DNA of 64,000 nt from Ischnura elegans. Lineage: Eukaryota; Arthropoda; Insecta; Odonata; Coenagrionidae. The DNA lies in the NCBI RefSeq assembly GCF_921293095.1, contig NC_060247.1, positions 109,945,111-110,009,110 on the forward strand, written 5' to 3'. The translations under genes were made by a program, and so were the position numbers. The notes beneath the pieces were generated by a model. The model was given only the letters and a program-made list of their open reading frames with translations. It did no database searches and was not told the DNA's origin. Below, one piece after another: positions 5,529-60,286 of the stretch. Within the stretch, counting starts at the first letter, position 1, and each line of letters opens with the position of its first letter.

Positions 5529-8500
5529 TCAGAGTGTACGTTCACTATAATTTAAAGCTAAAGTTAAATTAAAACTGCTTTCCTCGAGTTGCAACAGATA
5601 CTTTGAGCATTGTTCAGTGTTCCTCCATTTGTTAATGAGTATTTGGGCTGAGGTTTTCATTTCCAGCGAGCACTTTTCGGTATCCTTCTCTGCGCACGTC
5701 AAGAAGTCTAGGTATTTCCTGAAAAAAAAAATATTTATCCTATATGATATAGTAGGGCATGTCACTGTTATTTACATTTCAATGTCTACGAAAAATTTGA
5801 TTTTGAATACGGGTCAATGAAATAGCAGCACTGCTGTCACCATAGATGTTTCTGATGAAGGCATTAGTAATTCCAACTACCGTTCACTGGTGAAGCTAAG
5901 GATACCCCATTTTGTTTTATCAAGGGATGAAGTAGTATACGTAATTTTTTCTTCAACGACATCACAGCAATACCTTTTCAATTCATTTCCGCGAAGAAAG
6001 TTTATTGTATCCGTAACATTAAAGTGTAAAGTCTTTATAACAGCTTATCAAAGATAATAATCACCCATTGCGTTATAAAAAATTAGGTTGAGCTGATAAT
6101 AATTGGCTCAAATGAAATTAAAAAGTTTAAATTATTAAGTCGGTTAAATATTTTTATTAAAGTATATCTTCTCTGAGTGCCCGTCCCACAAGTTTAAGTG
6201 TCAGTACTATATTTACTCATGAAGCAGTATGGCCGTGATTAAACGAAATTGGGTTGAATTTTACTAATACTATTTTATGGAATTTAAGGAATACACTTGT
6301 AAATTTATTATATTATTTTGATTTTTTCATTGCTATTACAATCATAGAATTGGCACACTGAAGCCATGCATTCTTTTCCGATCCATAACTAGATTTCTCA
6401 ATCTCAACGAGGCTATTCTTCCCCAAATCCTTTTTGATCTGTCCTAGGTACATGTCCCTTGGTCCTCCCCTGGGGAATGGCCGATTTTTTCCTCCATTTT
6501 ATATCCAACGTTATTGCTGTTTTACGTAGAAAATAGAAATATTATTACAAATGTGGCCATTTTAATCTTAGCCCTTGTTTCTGTTAAAACGCCATCAGTA
6601 CATTCCCTTTAAACGGAAATATAGCAAGGTGTAGTAGACGAATGCTTCATCCAAATTTTCAGGGAAATACATTTTACCCACCGTGAAGGAGGGTACTCGT
6701 TTTTATCAATTTATGCATTCTTCTGGACAGAATTCTCCTGCAACAATTGAGTCCTTCCTTAAGAAAGCAGACCTAAAGTAATCTCCCCTGCCTTAATCAA
6801 AAAAAGACTAAAAAAAAAATTCTGAAAAACCTTCATCAGCGATGTCTTTCATGTCTGTGTAAGATGTAGGCTTTTTTTTTAAATTAAGATGAAGGCTTTA
6901 ATGTTGCTATGATTACCTTTACTAAACGGGTCGTGATTCTGGTAGTCCATATGTAAAAACTACTCGGAATGGGGACAACTGACAGCTTGCGTCGGGGGAA
7001 ACGTTGTCAGAGTCCTGCCCTCATTATGTTGATGAAATATGCAATTTACCATCTGCATGTTTCGTCAGCCTCGGAATGGAGGAAAATTTCCGATTCATTC
7101 CAGATGCACGCTAATGGGAAACAAAAAAAGACGCGGTAGGTCAATAAGGCGTCCGCATTCATGGAAAATGTTAGGCTGACTTCTCTTTTATACATGAATG
7201 CCTCCTCAAGAAATCTCTATGATTGTAACCTTAGAGTAGGGATAGGTAAAAATTGGGTAGCTAACACTCTGTTTGGTATACATGTGTGCCCATCATATGT
7301 ATCGCTTGACGTGGGAAATTAACGCGACAGTTCAAAGTGTCACGCTCCGCAATCTTCTTCAATGTCCTTGAGGAAGCTGTAATTGATAAAATCGCATTGT
7401 GGAGAAGCAATTCGTGTTGATTATACCGCAATAATACTATATTTTGACGTAGAAGCTACACACTCATGATTGATCGATCATTGTTGAAAATTTAGGGACG
7501 TATTAAATTGAAGCGCAATAGACTAAAGTATTTTTTGCTTTAATCAAATATGAAAAATCACTATGATTACCTTGAATGATTATTCTTGGCACTCAAATGT
7601 GAAGCAACAATGAACCGATTCGCTTACCGTACGCAGGTCACGAGACGAAATATCACGTTACTACTGAGACTTTCGAGGTGTGTTGGTACCAAGTTAGTGA
7701 CGTCATCCGCCTGCACTCATCCTTACTCTAAGATTGTATTCAAACAAATAGATTCCCTGTATTTTTTGGTACATGTACCGTCGTTGATGGTTTGCGGAAT
7801 TCACTCATGATGAATGAAAATTGAACTTTGTTTTTCCACACATATCTATTTAATCACGACCGCGGTTTCGACGCACTGCGGCGCGGTCGAATATATGTGG
7901 AAAAACAAAGTTCAATTTTCATTCACATGTGCCGTCACTAATTTTCAGTTATATTAGAATGATGGGTGAATTATATTTTTCATACTAAGCCCACTTGCCG
8001 GCAAATGAACTGCTTGGTGTAAGGATCATTTTCTGAATTTACGAAGTCACAGTAAGCTATCCTGGTAAAATCGTGTGCACCCTCAAAATGAGACTTGCAC
8101 TCATGCCAACTGCTTGTCAGGCAATCGCCTTGATCTTCGTCAAGAAATGCTGGAAATAAAGCGGAAGATGTTTCTGAAGTTTTCCCCAGATAGAAATGAC
8201 ACTAAAACACACTATAATCACCGCAGTTATATTCGACAAGATTGCTTTGCAAGTTTTTGTGGAGTAATTGATGAATAGTCTCCATCTTTAGTGTATCCAC
8301 CGCGTAGGGCTACTGGCAAAACTGTCGTCACAACCAATGACTCCTGTGCGGTGGCACCCAGAGGATTGAGTGTTTTCTTATTTAGGAAGGACTAACAATC
8401 TGACAGCTTCCGAAAGACAAAGATATTTATTTGAGATGTATGTATAAAGTATGTCTATCTAACGATTTGATCGTTGAATTATTCTTCCTCATAGAATAAT

Positions 8501-11500
8501 CCTCCAAGGTCGTTAGATTATTAATTGCGTAAGCTTAGTTTCGCTGTTAGTAGGACCCGCCCGCCTAGTGACGGTGCGGGATTCCTGATCCCTTCCCTTT
8601 CTTCCCTGTCCCCTCCCAGGAGGCGTCGTCGGGCTCCTATCGCGGCGGCGCGGGCGCCTCCTTCCTTGTTCCTTCACGTCCTTGCCCTCCTGGGTGCAGA
8701 GGAGAAAAGCTAGCGCTTACAGTCCCTGCCCCAGGAGTGTATCCCCGCGAACCCACCCCAGGGTTTCGTTTCCATTGTATAAAGTATGTCTACTGGTACC
8801 TGTGATCAACTCAGCATCATTCTCACAAAGTGTCTGAAGACTCATCTCGACCAATTCCCTGACGAACGGAACCATTTGAGCCGATTTATTCGAGAGGGAA
8901 ATGAACAATCCCTCTGATTCGCGTATACACCTCAGTACTTCACTCTGCTTCCTGAAACAAAAACCGGGATATGATGTAAAATATGATTATCATCCATGAT
9001 AGATCGTCTGTTTTTTCGAGTATGCAAAATTCTCGGAGGAAAAATCATTTGCCTTGACCGGGATTCGAACCCGTACCTCCCGATTCGATCCCGATTCGTA
9101 TTTTCTGGAACGGCCAAGGTGTCTTCTTCCCTTACCTTGTTTTGTTTCCAATCCCGGTTAAGACAAATGATTTTCCTCTCTTTCGAAGTTTTACAGTATA
9201 AGTGTACATTCGGTTGATTTTACAGAGGTAATACGCTGCCTAGTACCCGGTTATTCTTGAATAACGCCAGAATTTAAATTTCAATCAGTAGGTGGAATTC
9301 TGTCATTGATTATTCTTAATCTCAGAAAAATTTATAATTCAGAAGAATACCTACTTCTGGATCCACCTTAGTCCACCACATGATTTAATCAACCAGTATT
9401 TTCCCAAATGCGATTATCTTAAGATACTGCTTTTTCTAAGCCAAAACTTTTATTTCATAATTTGCCAATGGTCTCAAACAAATATTACTTTTAAAATGCT
9501 AGAAAATTGATGGTACGGAAGCAAAATAATTAGCGATAGAAGAAGCATGAAAAAATTAGCTGGAGAAGAATCTGAGTTATGGTGACAATGGATGAAAAGA
9601 AGATTTATACTTTCCAGCCGGAGGTTTAACTAAAAGAGCTATAAAATAATCATTCAAACATACGCTTTACTATGGTGATTACGCTTATACGATGACATCA
9701 GCAGTGGAATGAAGGGTAAAGGCATTTAAAATGTGGTGCCGCAGAAGAATGATTATAATGAAATATATCTACTGAGAGAGAAATGAGGAAGTCTCAAGAA
9801 GATTAGAAGGGAAGAGGAATCTCATAAAACTGAAAAAAAGGAATCACTTAATAAACCATAGTTTGAGGCGTGAAGACCTGGTGAAAACTATCTTGGATTG
9901 ACAAGTGGATGGCATGAACGGAAAAGAAAGATCTCACATAAAATATACATCTACAAAGTACCCCGCAGCCGCCTAAAAGGCGTGTAGCAGGGGATGTTAG
10001 GACACCAGCCGTCTGCGCATAAAAAATGAAGTGCCCTAACGAAGTTGGGACTAGCATTTATTAAAGTCCTATGTGGTTCGGGGGAAAAACGAAGTCCCAT
10101 ATCTATCCGTTCGGCAAAACACCTCTCTTAATTTATCGCTTCTATCGGACCTGGAAATATAGTGAGGCTCTTATATTATGTTCTTCCTGTCGCTCTTAAA
10201 GGTATCCATTCTCAATTGTTCAAGCAATCTAAGCCTAGCGTGCAGCCTCTAAGTATCCAGGGGCTCCCAGCCTCATTCACTTAAAATCTGCGTAATGCTG
10301 TCAATACTCCCGTAGCAGGTTTTGACAAATCGCGCAGCCTTCCTTTGTATTTTACTCAGTTCGCGGATTAAGTCTTCCTGCACCGGATCCCATACGCTCG
10401 CAGCATATTCAAGGTGCGGACGGACGAGTGCGAAATTCTTTTCACTTTCTCATCCGAAAATCTTCCCACAATACGTTAGACGAATCCTAATTTCTTTAAG
10501 GCTATGCCACAGATATTCCTTATATGTGGCCCCCACGATAGGTTTGAGGTTATCGTAACTCCTAGGTACTTCACTTCTTCTGTTGCCTTTATTTTAATAC
10601 CATTCACAGAATAAACATAGTTATAGTTGGACGATAAGTTCCGTAATATATGAGACAAATAATCAAGGATGCGAAAGAGGAGAATAGCTTGAATCCGAAA
10701 ATAGTTTCAGATTGGAGAATTGAGTGGGATGCTTTGTCAGACCAATCTAACGTTTGTTGATCTGTGGTGATCATGATTATTTGAGATGCGTGAAAACAGC
10801 AAATGCGATCGTAGATGCGATGTGCGCAAATAAATGCAACATAGATGGGATGATTGGACTTTGATGATATTTTTGCGCAAATTTGCCTTTTCGACTGCAA
10901 AATTCGTACATTTTGTGCCGAGCGCAGTTTAAATACTCCTCCGACACTCACCGCTTAAAGCATGTGAGCGACTGGCCAACTGCTAATTGGCTGGGACTCA
11001 ACGTAGTAGTTAACTACAGATGGGCGCAGGCAAGCTACACCTCCGCCACTAAATGTCTTATTCCTTAATTTATTATTGTCCTAATACATTCCCACTGTCC
11101 CTATCTGGGATTTTTCTTCCTCATAGGAAAATCTCCTCGGGATGGTGGAAGATTAATTGCATTTGCTTGGTTTCGCTATTTAGTGGGCCCTTTTCGCTCT
11201 GTAGCGTTAAGGTGTTTTTCCCCGTCCCCTCCCTTCCGTTCCTATCCTTTTCCCAGAGGCTTCGGCGGGCTCCCATCGCGGCGGCGCCTCTATCCTTTTT
11301 TCTTCCTCTCCAGCCCCTCCCCGGGTGATCGGGCGTATAAGCCACGGGCTTGGTTCCTGGCCCCGGTGTGTTGTACCCTTAAGAGGGTTCGCCTTGAACC
11401 ATCATGATTCTTGTCCTAATACAAAAATTTTAAATGTTCTGTATTTTATCATACAACTGTGTTTCACTACATTTTATCATCAATCTACCTCATTATGAAA

Positions 11501-14500
11501 ATAGACGATATAAAATGCGATAAGCTGTTATTGAAAGTGCGATAAAATAGAAATGAAAGTGCGTCTTTCACGCATCAATATTGATGATTCAGTTTCTAAA
11601 TAGTGTACTGCAGAATAACGAATTTTCTTTATGTGTTTAGGATAGTGAGGATCAAAATTGGAAATGCAGGAAATGTTTTAATAGAAGAAATTCATGTGCC
11701 ACTAGCTAATCAAATATTGAGTAATTTCAAACGACACTTTAAATTTGGAACGCTTCCTAAACCAATGAAGGTGTCTTTTCTCACTTACCTGCATAAGTGC
11801 TTGCAATACAGGCATTTTGTCTGGTTGTACATTGACATTGTCACGTTAACTTCTTCATCGGAAAAATCATGATCAAAGCAGCTCCTAAAGATTCTGGTCC
11901 TTTCCTGAAATAATAATGAATTTGTAAATAGTTTGAGAAGCTTTTTACTGTGAAATAACTTGAATTATGTCGTATTGGTGATTACTTGCTTTCAGTTGGT
12001 GTAATAAATTAGTTTGTAACGGGTGTCTCTCGTCGGGTTTGCAAATTCAGCCTAATTCGACTAGAGGCCCGTCCACCACGTAAGCACGCGGATAGCTAAC
12101 AGTGGAGTAAATAATAACAAGAAAACAAATAAGATAATAAGCAACGGAAAAAAAATTAAAGGTACTATCCAGGGTTTCTAATGACTTTGAAGAAAACGAC
12201 ACGTTTCAATAATAGCTGTTACAAGCCAAGGTAAGATATTTATTTCTCCAACTATTTTGGATATTTGGCAGCACACAGAAAGAACGACAATTTTAAAATA
12301 CATTCTCGCCTCATCGGCTAATATAGCAATCCTAATCACAAAATAATGTTTTCCCCCAACTATTTTAATATTTGGCAGCTCACAGAAAGAACGACAAATT
12401 TACAATACATTCTCGCCTCATCGAGGCCTATAGAAATCCCAACCACAAGGTAAAGTTTGGCATAAGGCGCACGTGGTCCCGAAGACCTGACATAAATGCA
12501 CATGAATTGGAAACAGCAAGGAACACAAACCAAAATCAACGCTAAGAATTTAGATCCCAATAACGGGCACGTAACAGAAAATCACGAAAAGCAAAATTGA
12601 ACATTAGAAATCATCAAAGCCCTTTAGCCACATACCTCAATCCCTCACTCACACACACACACTGGTTTGAATTTTTAAGCACACTTGATGGAGAGATGTG
12701 GACTCCTGAAAGTTCGTAGGCCAAAGAGAGCTTTTTCGTGGCGAGCTCTTCTCTCTAGCATTTCCCTCACAGAGGGCAGCAGCAGCGTCGCACACTAGCA
12801 GACGCTTCATTCCGGTGGCACATACACCTGCGCGCGCCTCCTCGCCGGCGGGAATCCAAACTGGGCGCTCTGGTTAGTCTGCGCCATGCGTTAGCCTGAC
12901 CTTTTCTCTTGCGGTGGTCAGCCGTCAGAAGAAGAAGGCGGGTATCGCCCAGACCACGGCCAGGGATGACCAGTCCCTCTGCCGCGGACCCGTGGATCGC
13001 CGATGTCCTGAGTGCTCACAAACCTCAAATACATGCACACAACTTTATAAAAAAAACAAGACACACTTGATTATTGACGTACGTGGCTATCGGATTTGAG
13101 TTTATTCCTCCCAATTACAGAGGCAATGAACTTAGATAAAAAAAATACGAAATCTAAAGAAAATAATTTGTGGCTGAGATAACAAAAGAAAATAATTTTT
13201 TTTTCTTTGGAGCAAAATAGATACAATATATTCACACATTCCAAAATAATAACAGAGTGCATTAGTATTTACAAAAAAAAACTTAACATTCCTCTAATTG
13301 CTTTACAATCAACATAAGGCAATAGAAACAAAATAAATATAGCTTTTTATCCTAACACCTCCCACCTGCTCCTTTGCCTCCGAACTTTCGGGATTCATTC
13401 TCCAACTTTTGAGGGTTACAAGTTTAGTTTAGCAACTTACATTTTTCGATAAATATATATTGATCAAATTTTTATGCATTTGTCATCATCATGTTTACTG
13501 GCTATCAAATTCCGGGGAGGAACTTAATCCCTTACCATTTGCTATTCAGGGTGACGTAAATAGTCTTTATAATAAGCAAAAAATGATGATGAAATGATTT
13601 CTAAGAGTAAGGTGCTTTATGCTATTACTTTTTCATAACTTAAAGTTGACAAAGTTATGTTAAATGTATTCAAGACGATATCAGAGTGATTGCTTTATTA
13701 ATATAGATTGGTAACAATATTGGAAAGAAGTGTTTCCAAAAATGAAAACACTGTTCCTTAATTCAATTGATCACTCGCGGATCTTTTTTTGTACTTACGA
13801 TTTCAAAAGGGGTAACAAAAAGGAATATTTAGAAGTGATATGGATTAAATATAATTTTTCATAAAAGATACAGTGTCCGGCGTCATGCGGTGGAAATCTC
13901 TATTTAATAAGATATATATAATTTTTCAACCCATGAATTTTAGAATTCATTATCTGGCCTCTATCTAGTAAAATGGGTGGTTAACATATGAATAAACTAC
14001 TTACTTGCAGTATTTATTAAATTGAAATGACGTTTAGAAGTAAAAAAATGATAAATTAAGCAACTTTATTTGAACCGGGGATTTTATATCCACCATATTC
14101 AAAGTATCCTTGAAGTAAATAAGAGATAATCTATCTTGAACTGAAAACAGCATGGATTTTTGCTTTAATGAGAATTTGAAGCAATGTTTAATAGTTTCTG
14201 CCACATAAAGTACTTATTCATTAATGGTTGCTTTAAATTATGCTAGTGCACTCGTTTTCCTTGGCACAGTGAACTAATAAACTATTTTGCTCACCTGAAC
14301 CTGGTTTTGACAGTTCAACGAGTCTTCACCAATATTACCAGATGGAGCATTGGTGCTACATAGGATATGAGTTGAAAATACCATTACAGCACCTGTTAGG
14401 ATAAAATGGGAATTCAGACGGTGATTAGGTAGTCAGAGGATATATCATCTCTTTTTTTTCGAATTTCTCCAGAATCCATTTCTATTGATCTACTCACATC

Positions 14501-17010
14501 TCAATCTCGAGGTAGTTTGCTGTAAATATCCGGCGAGTTATCGTCTTGATCCGAAGGATATTTCGATGGAAACCCAAGCAAAAATCTTACCAAATGATTG
14601 CCATTTTTCGACTTAAGCCACGTACTTAAGCATAGGCCCATCGTTATGCTAAAACACTGTCATTTTTCCGTAGAGTGCCGCCAAATAAGTACACTTAACC
14701 GTTTGTCTTTAACATCATCTCTATGCAACAGTTTTCATGTCAATGAGTTAGAATGTGCGTCAACTGTGAGCACGTTAATAAACTTCAGATTATAAGGTTA
14801 TCAGAACGCATTTGTTTCGTATGAAAGTTGTTTGTGTTAAATCTACGAAAATTAACGAATAATTTTGAGAGCTGGTACAAAGTTGAGTATAAAAGGCAGA
14901 GAGCGAAAGCATTATTAAAACATTGCTTAATACATTCACTGCGCTATTATTCTTATTATTATTATTGTTCAGCCAAAAGACCGTGCAACTTATTTATTGA
15001 AACTCATTTCCCAGAAGATCATGAAACTCATTGACGGATTTAATCGAAATATTTACTGATGAGGAATTGTCCGTTTATTTTAATTTTCAGTTGGATGATG
15101 GAAAATAATAAATCTCCATGCGTCTCCACGCCTACGCTTCGATACAGTCATTAGTTATGGGTCAAACAATGGTAGTCTGCGTTGATATCCCTTCGCACTT
15201 ATTATGAGGCAATCTAGAGAGTAAGTCCGAGTTTGTCCCAAGATAACCCGCCATCACAAAAGAAACCAATTTTATCGCAGACAGATGATGGCGGCACTAT
15301 AACTTTGTCGAATTAATTGTTTCTCCAGTAGCGTGTAACGGAAGAGAATAGCATTGCCAAACTGCCTGTTCCACAGACAGGTTGACTCTGCTACGCAACC
15401 GGTCTATTGCCTTGTCGCCAATCGTTGTGGAGCAGTTGCCTGTCATAGTGTTGCACCTGTTGCTGTCTTTGTACTTGTTCCTGTTCATGGGCGTACCCAG
15501 TGAGGTGCAGGGGGGGGAGGGGCAGCTGCCCTCCCCCTAGAAGTAAAAATCGCAAAAGCCTTGAAGAAAAATTAGTACTGAACTGAAACGGAAGTATTCA
15601 ACAAATTTTCTTTAAGCCAAAGAGAAATTGAAATACATTTATATGAGATAGGTAACTAAAATAAAACTATTTTTACCACAAGGAAATAATCTCATACATT
15701 CCATGGCTTCTCCCCCCCTAAACCATGGCTTGCCTATCCCCCTAAATCATGGCTCCCCCCCCCCCTAAGCCACGACCTGCCCGTCCTAGGTACGTCCTTG
15801 TCCTGGTTGCTGTAGGGAGACAGGAATTGATGCGGCTTTCCGCTGCTTCTCTCCCGTTATGTGGGCTGTCTGTTTTTGATTCCCCTTTGCACTCTTTTTT
15901 TTTTACCCGCAACAATACGCAATGTCAAATTACTGCTCTGGGCCAAACTTTAAAATGTACATACAAAACCTCATCCCTATAGAACTTGGTGTGATTGAGA
16001 TAGACCCTGAAGTGTGACCGGGCAAAATAGAGAAAGACTGAAAAACTGTGATCTTAATACTAGAATTTCGTTCGCGATACAACCTGCGTCAGAGTATTAG
16101 TAAAGCAACGCTGCACTGCAGTGGCGAACTAGGAATATGCTTTGGGAGGCATGAGGGGCCTAGGGCGCAACTTCCCCCTCCAAGCAATCGTGATCCGAGA
16201 AAATGTTTGAAAAATGACATGCCTGGAAATGCATTTTACATCATTTTGGTACAAAAAAATTATTTTAAAGTTTAAATTTCAAATAAAGGCAATAGTTTCA
16301 TAGTAGTTTTTTTTTCTCTGAGGCTTTGGGGGGGATCTATCCCCCTCATCCCCTCCCATAGTAAACTCGGGTGGGAATCCCTGTCAGACCGTAGATTGAA
16401 AAATAGACTAAATCTTTTAGATATATTCAAGAGCAGTGTCTTTTCTAACGAAGTTAGCCATATCTTACGGACGCCAGCATAATACGGAAGATCATATCAT
16501 ATAAGTGTATAAGAGGGATGGACTGTAGAACAGACAGATTTAGAATGTCTTTTTTCCACGATCAATGATAGATTATAACGGCAGCGATAAAACTCATAAA
16601 TAGATGAGATGACTTTTAATGTAGCCTACTAACCTTTGTAAAACTTAATGCATGTTCTGACGAACATTTCTCGGGTTTGCATCCAGGTTAAAGCTTTTAT
16701 GCAAGTGGATGTAAACCCGAGAAATATTCATCAGGAGTATTCACCAGGAAAAAATTAAATCGCTTATTAATGCATGTTTATTATTATTATTTCAAACAGT
16801 ATATGGTAGTATAATATGCGTGACGTATTTTGTACCCTGTGGTGTGCATGCTCTAATTGCTTGCTGCATGCTGGTGATTGATCACCCCCTGCCAAAAACC
16901 CTAGAGGTGGCTCGCAGGGTATTATGTAGATGCATGTAGTTACGCCAATGCTACACTTAAACTAGGATTAGGCTCTTACCGAAAACAATCAGGAGATGGT
17001 ACGAAGTCAT
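5529..17010 (-). CDS. Gene 1: secreted Cys-rich protein, DUF1397-like, six exons
   Basis: Six coding exons on the minus strand: 16980-17010, 14295-14392, 11789-11904, 8800-8951, 7999-8149 and 5529-5718, phases 1-0-2-1-2, 738 nt, about 245 aa. Exon 1 (MTSYHLLIVF) and the start of exon 2 (GAVMVFSTHILC) form a signal peptide; an in-frame Met at 17025 would add five residues. Exon 3 carries a CxxC and ends HLC. Exon 4 has the conserved sequon SNKS before MVPF, then LCENDAEL. Exon 5 has spaced Cys and ends FIC. Exon 6 has TC, KC and QCSKYL. Other sequons are NVT and NQT (exon 3). The intron after exon 5 starts with GC (GCAAGT). Exon 6 is about 15-22 codons longer than in paralogues and adds NLT and NYS sequons. 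The introns hold SINE-like and GC-rich repeats, LINE pieces and tandem duplications. Exon structure is supported by paralogues; the DUF1397 (27-kDa haemolymph glycoprotein) name is inferred from Cys layout and size. Confidence 0.8.
6350..6530 (-). mobile_element. LINE C-terminal remnant (weak)
   Basis: Minus-strand translation gives scattered residues like the extreme C-terminus of RTE/L1-type pol (a basic stretch, then SLRLRNLVMDRKRM) with stops. It lies in intron 5 of gene 1. It is short and decayed, so it could be chance. Confidence 0.3.
7810..7925. repeat. Fold-back repeat, TTTGTTTTTCCACA family, copy 1
   Basis: ATGAATGAAAATTGAACTTT at 7810 and onward is inverted at 7893-7925 (arms about 34 bp, one small gap). 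The loop contains CGGTTTCGACGC. It shares arm and loop motifs with the larger palindrome at 53420-53578, including the outer ACTCATGATGAAT. It lies in intron 5 of gene 1. Confidence 0.8.
8460..8785 (+). repeat. GC-rich dispersed repeat, copy 1
   Basis: Collinear with 11090-11400. Both run ATTCTTCCTCATAG, then GATTAATTGC or a close variant, TTTCGCT, a pyrimidine-rich block, and CGGGCTCC then ATCGCGGCGGCGC. GC content is much higher than in the surroundings, so GC-rich ORFs here are spurious. It is a possible SINE or non-autonomous element, in intron 4 of gene 1. Confidence 0.65.
9030..9188 (-). mobile_element. tRNA-derived SINE fragment in an inverted repeat
   Basis: GGGATTCGAACCC at 9060-9072 is the reverse complement of a tRNA/SINE B box. 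The segment is itself a partial palindrome: about 9034-9064 is inverted at about 9149-9184 (AATCCCGG, AAATGATTTT). It lies in intron 3 of gene 1. It is not a tRNA gene because no cloverleaf can be drawn. Confidence 0.6.
9690..9905 (+). mobile_element. RTE-like LINE pol C-terminal fragment
   Basis: Plus-strand frames read KAFKMWCRRRM, then after a stop ERNEEV, KRNLIKLKKRNH and HSLRREDLVKTIL. This matches the usual C-terminal end of RTE/L1-like pol proteins (FEMWCWRRM, NEEVL, HxLRxxxLLK). It has stops and shifts and is dead. It lies in intron 3 of gene 1. Confidence 0.6.
10070..10660 (-). mobile_element. Jockey/CR1-like LINE pol C-terminal fragment
   Basis: Minus-strand frames give VKYLGVTITSNLSWGPHI, then LEYAASVWDP, KIQRKAARFV, and RLLEQLRMDTFKSDRK near the 3' end. 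This is the thumb and C-terminal part of APE-type non-LTR reverse transcriptases (the YLGV and YAxxVWxP motifs are diagnostic). Several in-frame stops and frameshifts show it is dead. It lies in intron 3 of gene 1. Confidence 0.8.
11090..11400 (+). repeat. GC-rich dispersed repeat, copy 2
   Basis: Direct-orientation homologue of 8460-8785, with the same order of motifs. Overlapping open frames on both strands here are a by-product of GC-rich sequence. It lies in intron 3 of gene 1. Confidence 0.65.
12238..12470 (+). repeat. Two-copy tandem repeat, unit about 115 bp
   Basis: The unit at 12238-12351 is repeated at 12352-12470. Both contain CCAACTATTTT, ATATTTGGCAGC, CACAGAAAGAACGACAA and ATACATTCTCGCCTCATCG. 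It lies in intron 2 of gene 1 and shows no coding potential. Confidence 0.85.
12646..12662. repeat. (CA)n microsatellite
   Basis: A short CA run, about eight units, just before a GC-rich block. Confidence 0.85.
12720..13030. other. GC-rich island in intron 2 of gene 1
   Basis: A sharply GC-rich stretch (CGCGCGCC, GCCGGCGGG) inside AT-rich intron sequence. A short plus-strand ORF (12914-13099) with a CRG/PEC run overlaps it but matches no family I know. It may be part of a transposon or LTR. Confidence 0.4.
15486..15780. repeat. G-run / C-run terminal-palindrome repeat, copy 1
   Basis: Runs GGGCGTACCCAGT...GGGGGGGAGGGG and ends in C-rich CCCCCCCTAAGCCACG. Similar GTGGCGTAGC-type ends with G and C tracts occur at 16115-16370, 18603-18900, 33545-33815 and 35715-35900. 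It is probably a short non-autonomous element family with complementary ends. Confidence 0.5.
16115..16370. repeat. G-run / C-run repeat, copy 2
   Basis: Begins AGTGGCGAACTAGGAATAT and ends in a G-tract followed by CCCCCTCATCCCC. It resembles the repeats at 15486, 18603, 33545 and 35715. Confidence 0.45.
16659..16732. repeat. Short inverted repeat around CTCGGGTTT
   Basis: About 26 bp at 16659-16684 is inverted at 16707-16732 with a loop of about 22 nt. A related piece (AAACCCGAGAAGTATTTATT) recurs at about 17386, suggesting a dispersed element. Confidence 0.7.
16836..16936. repeat. CACCCCCTGCC dispersed repeat end
   Basis: Contains GATCACCCCCTGCCAAA and CTCGCAGGGTATTATGTAGATG. The same motif forms the terminal inverted repeats at 28518-28885, and a shorter trace is at 9955-10000. 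Confidence 0.55.
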
Positions 17011-20288: not shown

Positions 20289-23200
20289 CTAGTTTTTAGG
20301 ATCATTGTCGAGATACTTGGAACAAGATGTTTCATATTTCCATTTCGATATGATCCTGGTCGCAGCTACTTTCATCTCCTCTGAACACTTGTCAAACTTT
20401 GCTTCTGAGCACTCCATGAAATCGAGGAACCTCCTGAAATGATAAGTTTCCATGAATACCAACCTAGTCAGTGCGCATACGTACTGTTGGAGCCTCATGT
20501 GAATTTTAATTGTTTCAGGGATAGCAGCAGTATTGTTATTTCATTGAATAACGCTTTGGCTAACTGAGTATATGAATGGAAGAATACTAGGGAGTTTGCC
20601 GCGCAAAATGTAAAATAAACTTTTCGTGAAACCAGTAAAAAAATTATATTTTCTCATACATCGCACATAAAAATCGCTCATCAAAGTCGAAGCCATCGAG
20701 GTTCATCAAAGCCAGTGCATTTACATAGGGACACTTGAACATATTTTTTGGAATGAGCATAATTTTTTTAAAAATTCATTAAACAAATTTATAGGCATGA
20801 AGGAAAAGTTAATATTTTCTAGTACAGTGAGCAGTTGATAAGGGGAGATTCAAATACTAGGTATGCACAGATGTTAACAGTTTTTACTTTTGAGGATGTG
20901 TGGGAACTGGTGGAGATTCAAAGAACTCCTCACGAAAGTTAGGAAAGTTTTACTCTATAGAAAATAAAAGGGGATAGTTATAGTATATTTTACTAAAATA
21001 TTAAGTACATAACTAGTATTACACTATAGTATTTTACTGTATTACAGTATTGTAATATATATAGTTTTTTAAATTTTACTATTGAGTAGAGTCAATTTCG
21101 AGAGATAGAATATATAGTATTTAGCGTATTTTTATTAAGTTATTGATAATAAATACTTATGATTGTATCTCAATTATGCCTACGCTTTATACTGGTCTCT
21201 TTGAAATTTAAGATACTCTTAAAAATTATATTAAATGCATGGTTTTTTGGATGGATTAATTGTAAAAGTAATCAAAAAGATCTTGCTTAAGTGAGTAAGG
21301 GAAGGGAGAGATTCAGAAACATCATATTTCGCTTGCGAGGGGGGAGGAGGGATCATAAATGTGTTTGAGCTACTCTTGAACGGTTCCTTATTGGAACGGA
21401 GGCCGATATACCACTGATTGCAAGAATACTCACTGGCAAATGAATTTTTGGTCTAAGTTGTCCTCCTCCGGGAGTGGGTAGTCGCAGATGGCTACCTCGC
21501 TGAAGTCATCCGCTCCACCCAAACTGGATCGACACTCACTCCAAACGTTGGAGAAGCAGGTGCTTTGATCTTCGTTCATGAACACTGGAATCGGAAAGTT
21601 AATCATTTATTACATAATACTGCAAGTATGCTATTTCCTGGTGGTAGCATTAGATTCAAACACATTAGCGATAAATCTACGTATCTTATAACGATGTAAA
21701 GAAGCAGAAAATACACATATGGTGAAAATACAATAATTCTAACGTCATACAGCTAACAAATGAAGATTTACCCAATTTTTAACTCTCCACGATAAACCAC
21801 AGTGTCATCAACCAAGAACCTATGGAGACGTATTCCTAAAAATTGTGGCGTTTGTGGGGAAGATCTTAAAAATCTTCTTCTTCTTCCATCCAGGACTAGG
21901 CTACTAAGCCTGTTCCCACTCCTCATTACCATATTTTTCTTGGTATTAAACACTTCTTTTGCCAATTGGTCGATATAGCACTGCTTTTTTTGGAATTCTT
22001 TCATTTGGCAATCGAAGTATATGCTCATTCCATCTGGTTTTGTATTCTTGTTATTTATCAGTAGCTGCCTGGACACCCAGTTAATCTCTTATTTGAGTAC
22101 AATTTCTAAATTTATCCAATCTTGTGCAGCCTTTCACTGATCTTAAAAAGTTCATTCCAGACGATTCTTTCCGTCTTAGTTCGTTCTGATCCGTAGTGTA
22201 CAGTAAGGACTGCCATCACTTTCACGGGGTTACCCGAGAGGCAAGAGGGCTTCTATTTTCTTCCTTTCTCCTTAGCACTTCCTTATTACTTGCTCGATTA
22301 TTCCATCTTATCTTCATCATTATTCGGTAGCAACAAATTTCAAATGTTTCCACTCTCGGCCTATCTGCTGCTGTCACCTTCTAAACCTCGCACTCATAGA
22401 TAAACATGCTACAGATGAAGTATCTGATGAATCGTTCCTTGTTTACATGCTTTAATTGGGCGCAGTCGAGGGCTTGCTTGAGACCATGTTACGAATGCAA
22501 ATTTGAGGAACCTTCCAGTACATACCGCTTAGTAATTCGGCATCGTTATCACACAATGCACGGATACTCTCCTCCACCAATCCACTCACGAAAGGAACCA
22601 TGACCACCGACTGGTTTGAGAATGACTTAAGATCGTCGGCAGCTTCTCTAATGCATTGGAATATCTCCTCCTGTTTCCTACAAGAAGATAGAAAAATCTC
22701 TTTTCGGTATTTGGCATTGGTAAAGCACTTATGAATGAGGGGGCATTTAAGGGGCTCCATCACCTCCACCCCAAAAACTTTTTTCTCCTAAGGCAACTGC
22801 TCGCGATACATCCGATTGAGGACAATTATTCCAGGGGCGACACTTTTCCGACATGACTCCATAACCCTGTTTTTGCCGAAATACAAAGAATACATAGGCA
22901 TTGAATACAATTTGGTTCGAGGTTGGCAAAAAATGTCGAAGGAATAATTTTATTTTTTAATAACATTTAAAAACTTAGTAATTAATTTTTGGGAAGACCA
23001 AAATTTTCTTTCGTGTAATATAAGCTCAATTATTATTGAAGATTATTTATTAACTGAAAATTTAAAAGTATTTTACTGCATTGGATGCAATCAGCGAATG
23101 TCGATGGAGCCGAAAAAATTGAAAAAAAATCCGGTGGATTTCCATGTTATATTCCTATCGAGAACATAAAATATTAACTAAGTCAATGTCCTCCGTGAAA

Positions 23201-29485: not shown

Positions 29486-29516
29486 ATGGCGTTTCCGGTT
29501 CATCTGATCTTTTTTG
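29486..29516 (+). pseudogene. Isolated first coding exon of the same family
   Basis: ATG starts MAFPVHLIFF and a phase-1 GT donor (GTGAGT) follows at exactly 31 nt, as in every family member. HLIF is shared with gene 2. No exon 2-6 could be found before the next first exon at 32022. It is either the stump of a deleted gene or an alternative first exon spliced to the exon at 37873. An upstream in-frame ATG at about 29450 falls in the block that is untranslated in gene 2, so I prefer 29486. Confidence 0.6.
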
Positions 29517-36412: not shown

Positions 36413-36499
36413 TAATAGGGAAAAACGGTTGATGTAACCACATCAACAACTACTTCTTTTGACATCGCGTATGAATAATCTGCGTGATTCGTCTGAACT

Positions 36500-46060: not shown

Positions 46061-46117
46061 ACTCGGCGGTGACCCAGATATCACTTCCATTTGCAGTGGT
46101 TCGTGAAATATCAAAAG

Positions 46118-46422: not shown

Positions 46423-47794
46423 ATATCAAAAGAGATCTTATTCCTTCGTCACCTCGAAATCAAGATATTCTGATCGATGGCTCTTATGAATTCGCACCTA
46501 ACCGTAAATTAATCTTTGCGTTTAATTGAGTGTCAGTCACTTCCCTTTTAAATGTTGCAATAATTTGAAATAAACAATCTTCTCATATCGATTTTATCGT
46601 TTTTTTTCAGCAATTGCCGACGAAGGAAACAAAGAGTGCGTGCAAAGTGACTGGGCAGCATGCTCAACTCATCTCAATGGAATGGACAGTTGGCATAGCA
46701 TATTCTTCTGTGATCACTCAGACCCAGAGAAAAATTCTATAACGCCTAAGAGCTATTGCCAGTAAGTACATCTCTATTGGATTGTGCGTAACTGATATTG
46801 ATTTAGGACGTTTGAAACATCATTCAACAGTGCTGTCGGTCGGTCAGAAATTATGGCGAGGGAAGACCATTTTTGTGGCCGTCAGTGAATGTGGTGCTTC
46901 CGATCATAAGATGATGATCATAAGTGATGATATTAAGAGATGCTCTAAAAAATGTTGTAAAATTTCTCTGCCTCCTGGATCAAACTCTCAAAGGCTTTTC
47001 TATTTGGAGTTAATTTGTTACTTTGGCCTCACCGTTTTACACAGGTCTGAAAGCGACTGAGTTGCCCTGAGCCTAGTCTCAGTCTATCCCACTTTGGTGG
47101 GCTTTCAGGAAGTCAAGTGCCCCCTGCCATTGTCCACTAAAATATTTGGGCGTGTCTCTCAGTCGCAAAGATATTTGAAATTAAATCGACTAATTGAAAG
47201 TTTATAAAGCTTATGAATGTTGGCGAATCGCAAAATCCTCCTTAAAATTAGTCTAATTAATCATATAATATTTCATAGCACATTTTAATATTTCAGGAAA
47301 ATACTTACATCTCTGGAGTGCATCAAGTCACAATCAGAACAGTGCTCACAACACATAAAGAGGGTTGTTCCACTTCTTCTGCTTAAATTACGGAACTCCA
47401 CCACGTGTTCCAGATATTACTGATATTGAAGATCTTATTGTCATTAAATCATCAAATTTGTTCTAGACTCATGGGAGCGAGTTAGGTGGAAAAGAACGTT
47501 TGGAAGAGATCGACGATCTTGGTTTGTTGTAATTTTTAGATTCGAAGAAATCGCTTAAGTAAATTATCCACCAAAGCTGTTTTTTTTAACTTTAAACAGT
47601 AAATGTTCTCTAATTGTTGTGTTATCGTATATTTTTGTACTCGAATTCTTGTTTTCATTGACAATTCCTGCATTAAATGCATGCATTTACATGAGAAAAG
47701 ATATATCTATAGAATCTCCAGGAAATGGACGTGAGTACTGATAAGAGGTAAATATTTCTATGTTCAATCATGTAATGCAGCATAAGTGTAGAGC

Positions 47795-50370: not shown

Positions 50371-50414
50371 GAATCAAGTCCGAGACTTATTCGCTTCGCC
50401 GTCTCGGGGGAACA

Positions 50415-53914: not shown

Positions 53915-56900
53915 TTATCTCGAGCAAAAAGACGAATTTCTCCATATGGACATGACTTGAGCGACAGATGTTTTAAATTCCTCCGGACACCTTCTGGTTT
54001 CTTCCTCTCCGCATTCAAAGTATTTGTTAAATTGCCTGCAATGAATAATATTTTGAGTAAATAAACACATTGGACCGGCAAAAAAAGTTACCCAAAATGA
54101 GGTGACCACGATTCTCTAGGGATTATGCCAACGGATATTTAAGAAAAAAATTAATAATAAACTACACTCTAAAGGCCGAATTCATAGTATCATCGTAACT
54201 GTACGCTAAAGTTCGTCTTGATTAAAACCTTCAAATTGGTCAAGGCGAGTTTATTAGGTATCCGAATTCAAGGTCAACAAATAAGCCAGTCTTGACGAAG
54301 ACGTCTTGATTAAAAAGCGGAATTAATAATAAGCACATTCTTGAAACAATCTTCGTCAACAAAATACTTATGACTTGTCTACGAATACGTCCCTAACTGT
54401 CAAGTAACTAATTAAAGCCTTTACCGTGTAGGAAAGATTTAAAATAACCCTTACATTAGCGATATTTTTATGATAGTATAAAAAAGTTTTGATTCGAAAA
54501 AAATTGGTAATAGGAAATATAAGTCTTCAAGAGATTTTTTGATTTACTTCCCATTCATACTCGGGGTGGTGGTTATATTGTAATTCGCCTTAGGCTTAAG
54601 GTCCTTCTATTTTCTAACTCTTAGTGGCATGAGGACTGTTTTCATGTTTTGATTTATCACTTGATTTAACATTAGCACATTGTACCTTGCTGCCTCTATA
54701 TAGATATTATGTCATTTGTAGGTGGAGTAGGTATTACTCCGGTTAAACTCCCGTCATCACTTTCGAAATTTAAGAAAACACCGAGTGTTGTTAGTGAGTT
54801 TTTCCCTGTTTATCAATTAGAAGAAAAATCTCAGTAGAGAACGGTCCGGGGCTAATTATAAATTTGGAACACGGAAAATATTTACCACTGTCTATTGGTT
54901 CGCAGTACCTTGTAATCAAAAGGTATAAAAATATTCAATGTCAGACAGAGCCAAATGTCGAAATGGTGCGAGTAATATTGATTATACACCCTGAAGATTT
55001 CAAGAAAAATATATAAGTTTCAAAAGATCTGTCACAAAGACGAACGGTCAAGCAGGATGTATACGTCTTCATAAGGCAACTGATAGCTTGACAGTCAAAG
55101 ACTTTGGCAAATAAATCATCTTATACCATACTCACTCGCAAATGAATTGCTTGGAGAAAGGATCCAGCCCCGGTTTGCCTGTGAATTCGCAAAAACCGAC
55201 GAGGTCTAAGTCCACATATCCTTCCAGATGATGCCCACAAGTGGTCCAGGGTCTGTTAAGACATTCCCGGTTTTCTGCGTCAAAGAGCACTGCGAGTGCA
55301 ACAGCAAGGAATAGAGTGAGAGAAAAAGAGAAAGACAAAACATGTGAGTGACAGAGATGGGCTACGATAATTTCTCTACCAATGCATTCACGGTCCGCTC
55401 AATGAGTTTCCCTCAGTGCATATTTATCTCTCGCGCAACGGCAACGCCGGATAATGGTGCTTTTTCAATTATTTGATTTTCGCATCCATTATATGCTGTG
55501 GTCCTAGGGCATTTAACCTGCTGCCACATTCCTCATTCGTTCCGCTGGGAAATCCTTTGTGGACTCTGGATACTGAATAGAATATCGTTTCAGGAACCTA
55601 ATGTCGACACACTCATCAAAATTAAAAAAAAGGCATTAAATGTATTGATTGATTGAACTTTTTAACGCATAATTATTATTAAGTCCCTTGGAATTTTATG
55701 TTTTTATTAATTTTATTGACGTGGTAATAAAGTGAAGTGGAGCATAGTGGCCCTTCGGACAGTGGGAATTAGATTTCTAGCAACTACATGAAAAAAGGCT
55801 GAAAATACCTTCATTATTGTAGTCCATTTTCGAGTTTACTGCAATGCGAAATGAACATTTATCCTTCAATATTTCGTTCATCCTGCTGGGAATGAGACTA
55901 TAACGCTTTTCATATAAACCTCAAGGAATAAAAGGCCATCCCACGTAGTACTGAAATTTAAAATGAATAATAGTATAATCCTTTTCAGGTATCTTTCTGA
56001 TTGGCCCAGTTGTGCATCTTCGGGCGTTTCGAGCATAGTCGTGGCAGGAAGGCTTTACTTCGTTGCACATTTCAAATTGTGCAAGTAAAAGCCCCATGAA
56101 AAACTGGCTTTAGTGACAGTGACTTTGTAAGCTCGACTACCATTGCTTGTGCCACAATATATGTTTGAAACGAAAAAAAAGCACTTGTGTGGATAACCGT
56201 TTTGTGTAATCTGCCTTGGAGTAAGATGGCTTAGTGATTAACCAGCAGCTGTATCGCATAGACACAATCAGGAAACTCGTTGAACAATCCCTGTATTATT
56301 TAGATTTTTATATGAATTAAATATATCCAAAGTATATTTAAGGATAAGAAAAATCGGTACCACTGAGCGATGCAGCATCGTTTTCGCAGAGGGTATGAAG
56401 GCTTTCTTCGACGAAACCTCGTACCAAGGGAACCATTTCCAATGATCTATTCGAAGGATGAGGGAAGAGGGTGTCGACATCCCAAGACTCTCTTAAGCAG
56501 CGGCGTATTTCATCCTGTTTTCTGAAAAAATGTCAATAATTATGTTCATTACTATGGGAAATATGAGAGATAAAAATGGAAAGTGTTTGACTTTGATGGT
56601 ACTAACATAAGTTTCCAAAGTGTCCCGCAAATATTCTCAAGATAATTCTTTGAGAATGTTTAAAGTACTTTGTGTAGTAATATGACGTGAGGTAATAAAC
56701 AGTAGCGATAATACTACGCTACGAACGCGTCGGACACAATCAGAATTAATACAAATAGTGCTTGGGAGCATGAGATGCTCCTACGTACTAACTTTGGTGG
56801 CATTCTAGGCAGGCGTATGGAAATGCGTGGCGGGGAGACAAAAACATCTTTTGTAAACATAGATTTGCATGTATTTTAAAATAAAATGTGTATAATAGTG

Positions 56901-59900
56901 ACTCATACGTTAATTAAAACTAATTTCTCACCTGCATACGTGCATGCAAAAGGGGCATCTGGAATCTTTGTACAATTCTTTGGTCTCACTCAGTGCTTTT
57001 TCGGAGAAGTCATTCTCTAAGCATTGACGTATCACCCACCTTTGAGCCTGGAATTTTTATGTGAAAATCAAAAGGAATGATTACAAAGATTATGTAAATG
57101 AGTTCACATATAGCCATGATAGGGTGAAATAGGGTGAAATGGTGACATGTATGCAGTCAAGTGTTGTTTAGTAATGGAGCAAAAGTAATGGGTTTATTGT
57201 AAGATTACTTTTGCAGTAATTTGTACTTTTAGCAGATGCTTTTTACGTAATGTAATTTTTAATCGTATTTTACTCCGTAAGGCGAAAGAGGATCATGGCT
57301 TTCGTTATAATTGTTACTTTCTCGTAATCGATGGTTTTTAAAAACTAAATTTCACTTATCCGCGGTAAAAGAAAAACATCGTAATTTCCACACTTTTATT
57401 TCAAAAACTCAACTACCGACTAGGATTTCAACATATTTTGTCATGTTCAAGGTGATACAAGGAACACTATCTCAGTATGAAGAAATCATACAACAATTGG
57501 GGCGTAAGTAAAGGTCAGGGTTTTGACGTCATGGTGATGTTTATTTTTAAAAAGTTTAATTAGTACAAAATAAAACATCAATGCAAAGTACATCCGATCT
57601 AATGGAAATTGAGAAATTTTACATAACATCTAATTAAAGCTCTTGTGATTGCAATGAGTAATATATATATGTCAAAATCTAAAATTAATGCTCAGGTATA
57701 ATTGTTAGGAAAATAAAAACGCGGGTATAGTTTTATATATATATTGACGAAAATCAGTTTGGGTGAACAAATGAATGAATGAAGGCCGATGAAATAAAAC
57801 ATGCAACAAGTGGGGCTTGAGTGAAAATCAGGGTTTTGACTTCAGGAGACTTACTCAGCTTGTTTACTCAGTTTATTTACTCAGTTTATATTCATTTATT
57901 TAGTAATGAGATTAGATTAGAGGTAACGTTAACAAAGGTGAGTCGTTACAAAATAAAAAAATCAATAATAGGTACATCCGGGCTATTGGCAATTTCGAAC
58001 ATTTCCACAAAATAAAATGTAAGTACTTATTACACCTATATGCATAGCTCTAAGGATAATTCGAGTCCCTGATTAACATGATTTATTTATAAAAGTTTCA
58101 TCTCTTGTTAAAGGATTTTATGTTGCTGCCTATTAATCATAGGCACAAAGTATTTCATCCTATGTGTTGTTGCAGTAGTTATAAATACATGTTTCACAAG
58201 TTGAATTCCTACTTAAGCAATTACTATCGCCGCATAAGTCCACTTTTTCAATCCAATAATCCACAGTTAGAATGTGTCTCCGGACTGGACAATAGTAAAC
58301 GAAGATCTTACGGTAATTTTACTGATACTTTTATAAAATCAGTATCTTGAACTCTAAATTGATTTTTTTAAGTATCTTTAATTGAGCCCAGCTTCTTTTT
58401 CTCATTACTTTTACCGACACTGAGGATATTATACCGTTTTATACATTAATACTGATCAAAATCTAGCAAATGATTATCAATGACCACAATAACCTTGAAT
58501 TTCTTATCTATATCAAAATTAAACAATATATAGATAGTTTTTGATCCGGATTGGCAATATATTTTTAATTCGGTAAAAAGCATCAATGTAATTATCTCTG
58601 AAAGCTGTATATGTTTCTTAAGATTTATTCCTTTCATCCATGTTTTGTGTCAAATCATGTTCTGTAAATTATCATTCAGGAAATTTTGCAAATTAAAATT
58701 ATGGTAAATAAATGGAAATCAGTTGAAATCAGAGGAAAATGAGAAAATCAGTTGTAAAATCATTAGAAAAATGAATTATTCGAAAATTAGGAATAATTCA
58801 CAGAATACCAGAAACCCACAATATAACCTTCTCGGTCGTGACGTAATCTGCACAAAGTATTCTAGTTTGAATTTTATTCCCGCTTGGCTGATTGAAATGC
58901 CGTCATTGCAAGAAGTTCAGTGCCTCCTGAAAGATGGCAATGTCATAAAGAAGCATTATTTACAGAAATAGCGAATGTCGTTAGTTCACATAAAATTAGA
59001 AAACATGAAATTCAGACCAAAAATTACGGTTGACATATCCCGGGGCTAAGGAGGCTACTTTTTTCTATCGCTACGGTAGACTACCCGATTATTTCATTTT
59101 TATAATACAAATATCAGATGAGTAACGAATCGGAGAGGTGTTCCTATGCAACGATAGGTCTAGTGACAAACGATGAAAATTTTATGAGTATAAATTTGAC
59201 GAATGCGTCGACTTACCTCAGTTCTTGCTCGACAGTCCATATAGCCTTCCATTGGTTCAACAAAAAGAAGATCTTGGTGAGCTAGTGCCGCTGCTAGTGC
59301 TATGGCAGCCCCTGCGAGGTCAGAGTCGTAACTTGAGAATATTGATCGGTGGAATTGTACGGGAATCAATACCACTAAACTATAAACAATAATGCTAAAA
59401 ATATTAGTTTTTATCACAAAATAACAATGTTGTCCTAAATTCGGTTGAAAAAAAAGGTGAAAAAAGATGAAGACGAAATTACGTTGCATCGAGTGGAAAA
59501 ATAAGTTTTCATGCCCTTGAAAAGTTTCGGAGAAGTGTGGTTAGGCTTACAATCTACAAATGATTTTCCTTCCCCAATTGTATCCCTTCCGCCATTGAGG
59601 TCTCAGCCACTAAAAAAATAGTCCCTCTCTGCTCCCGATCACAGTCTTATGTTTTAAGAGTTGAGGACCACAAGTGAACGATATGCAATGGCAGGCAAAG
59701 TTAAAGTAATCTATTTCGAACGAAACCAGAGACCATGCTTAGATTTAAAACTTTTACTTTGATGCACGAGGAAATTTAGGCGGTATATGTCATTAAGATG
59801 TTTGTTAAATTGCGTAAAATTTAATTCCATTAGATAAAAAGACGAAAATAACTCAAACCAACTCATAAATATTTTTCCGTTATATAACCATACAAAACTG

Positions 59901-60286
59901 CAAAATTAGCTTTTACAGAACAACGGCCTTTCAAAAACTGAGAACCGAAGTTTTCGGCTTGAGGCTGCAACAAAAAAGTAAAAAAACCTAAACCTGTCTT
60001 AGATTGCAGAGCTAAGGAAATCAAAGTAAAATTATTTATATAATTGATTAAATTAGAATTATTTACTTGGAATTAAATAAGAAATAATTATGTTTTTAAA
60101 CATTTCGGTAGGAACACATGCTGCATGTGCTTTTAAAAATGCCAATGTAGCAATTTATGCACTAATATCTCTGAATAGAAACTTAGCCTGTCATATAAAT
60201 ACCATTTACGGTGGGATTGAGTTTTGTTTCAATAAATGTAAGACCAATATCTCACCAAAAACAATCAAATGCCTCGTGGTAGCCAT
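53915..60286 (-). CDS. Gene 4: secreted Cys-rich protein, DUF1397-like; exon 3 frameshifted
   Basis: Six exons on the minus strand: 60256-60286, 59217-59311, 56932-57048, 56361-56521, 55136-55289 and 53915-54035, all with GT-AG junctions and paralogue phases. It starts MATTRHLIVF then GAAIALAAALAH, a signal peptide; exon 2 has YMDC. Exon 3 has RQC, then CPFC and HVC, but is 117 nt instead of 116: an A6 run (plus strand T6 at 56997-57002) shifts the frame to a TGA at 56986-56988. With five A residues the frame would run through to exon 4. Exon 4 is three codons longer than in paralogues, with RRC, the sequon SNRS before LEMVPL, and LCENDAA. Exon 5 ends FIC. Exon 6 has YFEC, RRC and FCSR then TAA, two residues shorter than the usual CSKYL. 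It is either a young pseudogene or a homopolymer sequencing error. Intron 2 carries a direct duplication. Confidence 0.65.
57495..58060 (+). repeat. Direct duplication in intron 2 of gene 4
   Basis: 57495-57650 (GGGGCGTAAGTAAAGGTCAG, GGGTTTTGACGTCA, ACAAAATAAAACATCAAT, GTACATCC) recurs at 57805-58060 (GGGGCTTGAGTGAAAATCAG, GGGTTTTGACTTCA, ACAAAATAAAAAAATCAAT, GTACATCC). The offset is about 310-360 bp with small indels. Confidence 0.7.

What the first reader, a model, noticed from the sequence alone, without database searches (positions are those of the whole stretch)
5529..60286. Cluster of at least four paralogous six-exon secreted Cys-rich genes
Seen directly: four loci share the order signal-peptide exon (31 nt), acidic linker plus Cys, EC...VC exon, SN(K/Q/R)S-x2-MVP exon, four-Cys exon, and EC...KC...(S/T/F)C terminal exon, with identical intron phases 1-0-2-1-2. 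Three lie on minus, one on plus. Known families suggest DUF1397 / 27-kDa haemolymph glycoproteins, but the match is by Cys layout and size only, so this may be a distinct lineage-specific family.
Basis: partly seen in the sequence, partly recalled or inferred. Interest (0 to 1): 0.75.

Follow-up and report, generated by a model that had tools for sequence, protein, structure and literature searches.

The report
Giant damselfly hemolymph-protein gene cluster
These four look-alike genes are part of a megabase-long tandem array of some fifty genes in the blue-tailed damselfly, all diverged relatives of an insect blood glycoprotein family of unknown function (DUF1397, '27-kDa hemolymph protein') that keep their cysteine framework while much of the rest changes.

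Summary
The window holds four paralogous six-exon genes with intron phases 1-0-2-1-2: A, B and D on minus, C on plus. The DUF1397 guess is also right. Gene C and a close copy pass Pfam's cut-off for PF07165; A, B and D match it below the cut-off. The genome has one orthodox DUF1397 gene on another chromosome (200.8 bits), and the four introns I could compare lie at the same residues and phases as in the window genes.

The finding is larger than reported. The genome is Ischnura elegans ioIscEleg1.1, and these are 4 of 56 loci counted in a 1.19-Mb array on contig C2 (38 firm, 18 resting on weak hits plus a neighbouring exon). The array is a diverged subfamily: usually 13 Cys, an added CxxC, and an N-glycosylation sequon inside the 'SNxS' motif. 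Some recent duplicates replace amino acids quickly (dN/dS up to 1.0), yet none of 61 cysteines changed in five independent pairs.

Gene C has an in-frame stop in exon 2 that its two siblings lack: probably a pseudogene. Most likely function: secreted, disulphide-braced glycoproteins of hemolymph or gut, perhaps in defence. That is inferred; I had no RNA-seq, no other odonate genome and no RefSeq annotation.

The parts
5529..5718 (-). Gene A exon 6 (three-Cys terminal exon, stop codon)
7999..8149 (-). Gene A exon 5 (four-Cys exon, GC donor)
8800..8951 (-). Gene A exon 4 (SNKS..MVP exon; N-x-S sequon)
11789..11904 (-). Gene A exon 3 (C...CxxC...C)
14295..14392 (-). Gene A exon 2 (hydrophobic start, linker, Cys near its end)
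16980..17010 (-). Gene A exon 1 candidate (ATG, 31 nt)
20289..20433 (-). Gene B exon 6 (stop codon)
21434..21584 (-). Gene B exon 5
22526..22677 (-). Gene B exon 4
25221..25336 (-). Gene B exon 3 (CxxC absent)
25907..26013 (-). Gene B exon 2
26897..26927 (-). Gene B exon 1 candidate (31 nt)
29486..29516 (+). B-type exon 1 with its 5' flank, inverted relative to gene B: orphan, or alternative exon 1 of gene C
   Evidence: inverted-repeat arms 26889-27142 / 29272-29524, 76-78%
32022..32052 (+). Gene C exon 1 candidate (31 nt, GTAAGT donor)
37873..37967 (+). Gene C exon 2, interrupted by an in-frame TAA
41506..41621 (+). Gene C exon 3 (GC donor)
43334..43485 (+). Gene C exon 4
46611..46761 (+). 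Gene C exon 5
47297..47423 (+). Gene C exon 6 (stop codon)
53915..54035 (-). Gene D exon 6 (stop codon)
55136..55289 (-). Gene D exon 5
56361..56521 (-). Gene D exon 4 (161 nt, three extra codons)
56932..57047 (-). Gene D exon 3
59217..59311 (-). Gene D exon 2
60256..60286 (-). Gene D exon 1 (ATG, 31 nt)

Best explanation
The four genes are members of a diverged, expanded branch of the DUF1397 (PF07165; 27-kDa hemolymph glycoprotein) family, lying with some fifty further loci in a 1.19-Mb tandem array of Ischnura elegans. Shown here: common descent, shared gene structure, extent of the array, blocks of genes repeated in the same order, and cysteines held constant while other residues change. 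Inferred: each intact gene makes a protein of about 200 residues with a signal peptide that is secreted, N-glycosylated and held by about six disulphides. Inferred and less certain: the products are extracellular binding proteins of hemolymph or gut lumen, and unequal crossing-over plus fast change of non-Cys residues in some lineages supplies a varied repertoire, most plausibly for defence against microbes or parasites. Gene C is probably a recently disabled copy.
For: Exons and phases. PF07165: orthodox C1 gene 200.8 bits, C 31.0, C sibling 27.8; below the cut-off of 25.7: G01 22.7, B 21.4, G16 21.3, G03 20.2, A 19.3, G15 18.5, D 14.8, R165 14.8, R324 14.5. Introns: in the C1 gene and in A-D the ninth residue of exon 3 is Cys; introns 3 and 5 split the codon right after a Cys and eight residues before the next; intron 4 splits a codon nine residues before a Cys (phases 0-2-1-2; read by eye). 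Array: 56 distinct exon-4 places, 22 minus and 34 plus, median spacing 18.3 kb. Constraint: 0 of 61 Cys versus 95 of 814 other residues replaced in five independent pairs (Fisher p=0.001); no stop seen where about 24 would be expected under neutrality in seven partly overlapping pairs. Exon-4 sequon in 16 of 16 genes of the 264-kb stretch. DUF1397 in print: fat-body-secreted hemolymph glycoprotein, moderately induced by virus in Drosophila and Anopheles (PMC8914287, passages); raised by Fusarium in Galleria (PMC4224417, passages); listed in mosquito and soldier-fly peritrophic matrix (passages) and centipede venom (passage).
Against: Of 18 array-type proteins scanned, 2 pass the PF07165 cut-off, 9 match below it and 7 (G02, G04, G05, G07, G08, G09 and the outlying O121) give no DUF1397 match at E<=1. 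hhalign of the 14-member alignment with the single C1 protein is weak (probability 27%, E 6.7e-4, 20% identity). GF_recep_IV matches 4 of 14 members weakly (best E 0.0078, below cut-off). No tested pair has dN/dS above 1; the four fast pairs pool to 0.80 (pN/pS), not significantly different from 1 (p 0.27), so diversifying selection is not shown. Several pairs are constrained instead: R346/R507 0.05, A/G15 0.16, G01/G03 0.29, R324/R492 0.41 (p 0.02 or less), C/sibling 0.45 (p 0.10). 18 of the 56 places rest on weak hits. No expression, location or ligand evidence was available.
Confidence: 0.8

Rival explanations
1. A separate Cys-rich secreted family that resembles DUF1397 only by Cys count and size.
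For: Most members fall below Pfam's cut-off and 7 of 18 scanned give no match; identity to the orthodox gene is about 20%; the CxxC of exon 3 and a fourth Cys in exon 5 are absent from the orthodox gene.
Against: C and its sibling pass the cut-off along the profile; all four window genes match it; four introns coincide exactly in place and phase with the orthodox gene.
Confidence: 0.05
2. The array consists mainly of decaying pseudogenes, and its fast protein change is loss of constraint.
For: dN/dS of 0.57-1.0 in several recent pairs; gene C carries a stop; an orphan-like exon 1 lies at 29486-29516.
Against: 63 of 63 exons (3-6) modelled in 16 genes of the 264-kb stretch are open with phase-right splice sites (models were chosen to be open), as are the 28 exon hits (16 distinct exons) in right-arm loci; 0 of 61 Cys changed in five independent pairs; about 24 stops expected if neutral, none seen; several pairs are constrained.
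Confidence: 0.12
3. The products are not hemolymph or defence proteins but digestive, salivary, venom-like or reproductive secretions of a predator, as DUF1397 proteins occur in centipede venom and peritrophic matrix.
For: DUF1397 or 27-kDa hemolymph proteins are listed in centipede venom, mosquito and soldier-fly peritrophic matrix and louse salivary glands (passages).
Against: The best-described members are hemolymph proteins. No tissue data for Ischnura were available either way.
Confidence: 0.35

Closest known systems
PF07165 DUF1397 / 27-kDa hemolymph glycoprotein (Manduca, Bombyx, Galleria), and the orthodox I. elegans gene at C1:29793454-29797817
   Same: Length of exons 3-6, Cys at the exon borders, introns 2-5 at identical residues and phases, glycosylation sequons, acidic net charge.
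   Different: About 20% identity; usually 13 Cys in exons 3-6 instead of 11, with a CxxC in exon 3, four Cys instead of three in exon 5 and two instead of three in exon 4; 56 counted loci against one orthodox gene detected; mostly below Pfam's cut-off.
Centipede venom DUF1397 proteins (PMC4379518, PMC5869384; passages seen)
   Same: Same Pfam label; secreted; function listed as unknown.
   Different: Venom-gland products of a myriapod; sequences not compared here.
C. elegans chondroitin proteoglycan 4 domain
   Same: PMC8914287 reports a remote HHpred similarity of DUF1397 to it (passage).
   Different: Not tested here.

Membership tests
DUF1397 (PF07165) | Whole-protein score above Pfam's gathering cut-off (25.7 bits) | tested here: inconclusive
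   Met by C (31.0), its sibling (27.8) and the C1 gene (200.8). Not met by A, B, D and 13 others: 16 of 18 array-type proteins scanned.
DUF1397 (PF07165) | Match along the profile rather than a local one | tested here: met
   C 33-207 of 207, A 35-188, B 37-188, D 36-195, G15 35-207, G01 36-194, G16 73-207; 7 of 18 proteins gave no match.
DUF1397 (PF07165) | Gene structure shared with an orthodox member of the same genome | tested here: met
   Introns 2, 3, 4 and 5 at identical residues and phases 0-2-1-2. Exons 1-2 of the C1 gene were not found, so intron 1 is not compared.
DUF1397 (PF07165) | Secretion signal | tested here: inconclusive
   Exon 1 plus the start of exon 2 give a hydrophobic leader in A, B and D; exon 2 was found in 13 of 15 genes tried. 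Candidates were chosen partly for hydrophobicity and no trained predictor was run.
27-kDa hemolymph glycoprotein | N-glycosylation | tested here: inconclusive
   Exon-4 sequon in 16 of 16 genes of the stretch and 18 of 23 array-type proteins; the modification itself is not testable.
27-kDa hemolymph glycoprotein | Fat-body synthesis and presence in hemolymph | not testable with these tools
   No expression or proteomic data for Ischnura here.

The most novel reading that the evidence does not exclude
Damselflies have turned a hemolymph glycoprotein that is otherwise single-copy in this genome into a megabase repertoire of some fifty disulphide-caged secreted proteins whose surfaces diverge behind a fixed Cys framework: a lineage-specific humoral recognition or neutralisation system.
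Probability: 0.2. Interest if true: 0.75.

Novelty: new variant of a known kind. Interest (0 to 1): 0.5.

Why it matters
DUF1397 is a described hemolymph protein whose function is still given as unknown in the papers seen. A species with one orthodox copy and an array of some fifty diverged ones offers a natural variation experiment: copy number, expression site and fast-changing positions can be set against parasite load, diet and sex in a standard ecological model. The array is also a clear case of tandem segmental duplication in which exon lengths and Cys are kept while the rest drifts.

Tried and rejected
Rejected: unrelated family (shared introns, Pfam score). Rejected: that the four genes are the whole set. 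Considered and not adopted: positive selection; no pair exceeds dN/dS 1, and exon 6 of the fast pairs (1.61) is not significant (p 0.33). Pfam hits GF_recep_IV, DUF5898, vATP-synt_E and others are below their cut-offs; all but GF_recep_IV hit one member of 14. No PDB chain matches the family profile at E<=1. Exons 1-2 of the orthodox gene were not found in the 5 kb upstream. Structure prediction was not run: the tool takes proteins that the DNA gives letter for letter, and a spliced protein is not that. A viral-contig scan with the alignment was not accepted, so no sequence collection outside this genome was searched for relatives, apart from the PDB and Pfam.

Literature: 'DUF1397' is held by 7 papers, none on odonates by title. 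Searches listed no paper that reports this array, judged by titles and starts of abstracts; several lists were capped (8 of 11, 10 of 15, 10 of 208, 12 of 12,464, the last swamped by p27Kip1). Papers were seen as listings and as passages found by term, none in full.

Limits of counts: the 56 exon-4 places were put together by hand from hit lists with E up to 10 and my exon models, and counted. 35 of 56 reach E<=0.001 in one of these, 3 more were confirmed on sequence read, and 18 rest on hits of E 0.0019 to 5 that each have a neighbouring exon on the same strand. The tool says its counts are lower bounds. Only 264 kb of the region was read in full (plus the window); on the right arm I checked exons of 7 array genes and, from the loci, 16 distinct exons of 5 genes, so most right-arm frames are unverified. 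dN/dS: 22 of 120 pairs were printed; the seven pairs share members, the five do not; C against its sibling left out exon 5 because my trimming gave unequal lengths. Exon models were picked to be open, which favours open frames. Exon-1 candidates outside the window are unverified.

Full report
What is there. The window is C2:109945111-110009110 of a 1,722,721,009-base, 110-contig genome. Those figures and the length of C1 (170,575,982 bases) match Ischnura elegans ioIscEleg1.1 (1,723 Mb, 110 scaffolds, longest 170.6 Mb; PMC9975421, passages). Splicing by hand and by script gives four genes: A (minus, 17010-5529), B (minus, 26927-20289), C (plus, 32022 or 29486 to 47423) and D (minus, 60286-53915). 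Each has six exons with phases 1-0-2-1-2. The introns are GT-AG except A intron 5 and C intron 3 (GC-AG).

How many. My exon profiles found 16 genes in the 264 kb that I could read in full (C2:109775111-110039110), 15 with exon 3 (the sixteenth runs past the end), and no member in the first 37 kb. Exon 3 is 116 nt in 14 of 15, exon 4 is 152 nt in 15 of 16, exon 5 is 145-154 nt always in the same phase; 63 of 63 exons could be modelled open with phase-right sites. Protein searches of the whole genome with D, A, C and two other members show the array running to 111.005 Mb. I count 56 distinct exon-4 places over 1,191,965 bases, median spacing 18.3 kb, 22 on minus and 34 on plus: a minus arm, then a plus arm, with four exceptions. 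38 of these are firm (35 by E<=0.001, 3 read directly); 18 are weak hits that each have a neighbouring exon. From loci brought in, 28 exon hits (16 distinct exons of 5 right-arm genes) are open with phase-right sites and usual lengths. Three further exon-4 places lie at 119.7, 121.45 and 121.48 Mb. Matches off C2 were one each on C6 and C10 at chance level.

What family. PF07165 (DUF1397) searched against the genome gives only C1:29.79 Mb at E<=0.001, exon by exon. That gene, spliced, scores 200.8 bits. Among array-type proteins C (31.0) and its sibling at C2:110133840-110138790 (27.8) pass the cut-off. Nine more match below it, B 21.4, A 19.3 and D 14.8 among them; with exon 2 attached A, B and D gave no match. 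Seven of 18 gave none. In a 14-member scan DUF1397 is the family that most members match, 8 of 14. The deciding test is gene structure. In the C1 gene and in A-D, the ninth residue of exon 3 is Cys; the exon 3/4 codon is split in phase 2 directly after a Cys and eight residues before the next; the exon 4/5 codon is split in phase 1, nine residues before a Cys; the exon 5/6 codon is split in phase 2 directly after a Cys and eight before the next (read by eye). Four introns with identical residue and phase, together with the profile scores, make common descent nearly certain. The direct comparison is weak (hhalign probability 27%, E 6.7e-4), which measures how far the array has diverged.

How the array differs. 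The orthodox protein has 11 Cys in exons 3-6; 13 of the 15 array genes with all four exons in the stretch have 13, and B and its relative G08 have 11, lacking both Cys of the exon-3 CxxC. Their joint absence suggests that these two pair with each other (inference). In a tree of 24 sequences the C type groups with the outlying 121-Mb gene and R165 (support 0.99), and A, B and D with their copies group at 0.87.

How it evolves. Recent pairs range from dN/dS 0.05 (R346/R507), 0.16 (A/G15), 0.41 (R324/R492) and 0.45 (C/sibling) to 0.67-1.0 (B/G16, G05/G06, G02/G03, G09/G14). Constraint is significant for R346/R507, A/G15, G01/G03, R324/R492 and G07/G09 and not for C/sibling (p 0.10). The four fast independent pairs pool to 0.80, not significantly different from 1. 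This is not mere decay: 0 of 61 Cys changed against 95 of 814 other residues (p=0.001), and about 24 stops would be expected in the seven pairs, several sharing a member, had they been neutral, against none. It is not proof of positive selection either. Relatives of G09, A and B recur in the same order at 109.937-109.971 and 110.014-110.038 Mb, as expected of segmental tandem duplication.

Gene C. Exon 2 has an in-frame TAA. Two sibling exons, at 110131815 and 110148190, match it at 91 and 94% with no stop. C is therefore probably a recent pseudogene, or the stop is an allele of the sequenced female. Between B and C an inverted repeat (arms 26889-27142 and 29272-29524, 76-78%) carries a second B-type exon 1 with its 5' flank; it is an orphan or has been captured as exon 1 of C.

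How it works. DUF1397 proteins are described as fat-body-secreted hemolymph glycoproteins, moderately induced by viruses in Drosophila and Anopheles (PMC8914287, passages), raised after Fusarium in Galleria (PMC4224417, passages), listed in peritrophic matrix of Aedes and Hermetia (PMC5865745, PMC8035744, passages), and found in centipede venom (PMC4379518, PMC5869384, passages). The array genes keep a hydrophobic leader, sequons and Cys frame. I think the products are secreted disulphide-braced glycoproteins of hemolymph or gut, multiplied to widen a binding repertoire, most likely in defence. The chain from sequence to secretion is well supported; from secretion to defence it is a guess at about 0.4.

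Verdict. I did not see whether RefSeq already annotates these loci. None of the papers listed by the searches made (several lists capped) reports them as far as titles and abstracts show.

Noticed in passing
C2:119703009-119726896 (-) and C2:121476379-121504534 (+): Outlying family members form mirror-image arms: successive exon spacings 1324, 5228, 7798, 9412 versus 1287, 5248, 7715, 9393 bases, about 1.75 Mb apart. An inverted duplication of some 24-28 kb, or an assembly duplicate.
   Followed up: partly
window 26889-27142 and 29272-29524: Inverted repeat of gene B's exon 1 plus 5' flank, head to head (76-78%).
   Followed up: partly
window 38882-39925 (-): Open frame of 348 codons with a GIY-YIG-like motif (recalled) and a weak RVT_1 match (E 0.009): looks like a Penelope-type retroelement.
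   Followed up: partly
window 50340-52024 (+) and 45105-45755 (+): Non-LTR retrotransposon pieces: RVT_1 E 1.1e-14 at 51269-52024; at 45105-45755 only weak matches below cut-off (L_protein_N E 0.0005, zf-RVT E 0.0098).
   Followed up: partly
window 61441-63999 (+): Long frame reaching the end of the window with gag-type zinc knuckles, DTGA and reverse transcriptase motifs (motifs recalled; RVT_1 E 4.6e-5, below cut-off, on a piece): Ty3/gypsy-like LTR element; only described.
   Followed up: partly
window 12248-12448: Tandem repeat, period 107, 1.9 copies, in intron 2 of gene A.
   Followed up: no
C2:109865984-109866069 and 109885791-109885876: Nearly identical exon-2 copies upstream of two different genes (G04, G05): one may be misassigned or part of a truncated copy.
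   Followed up: no
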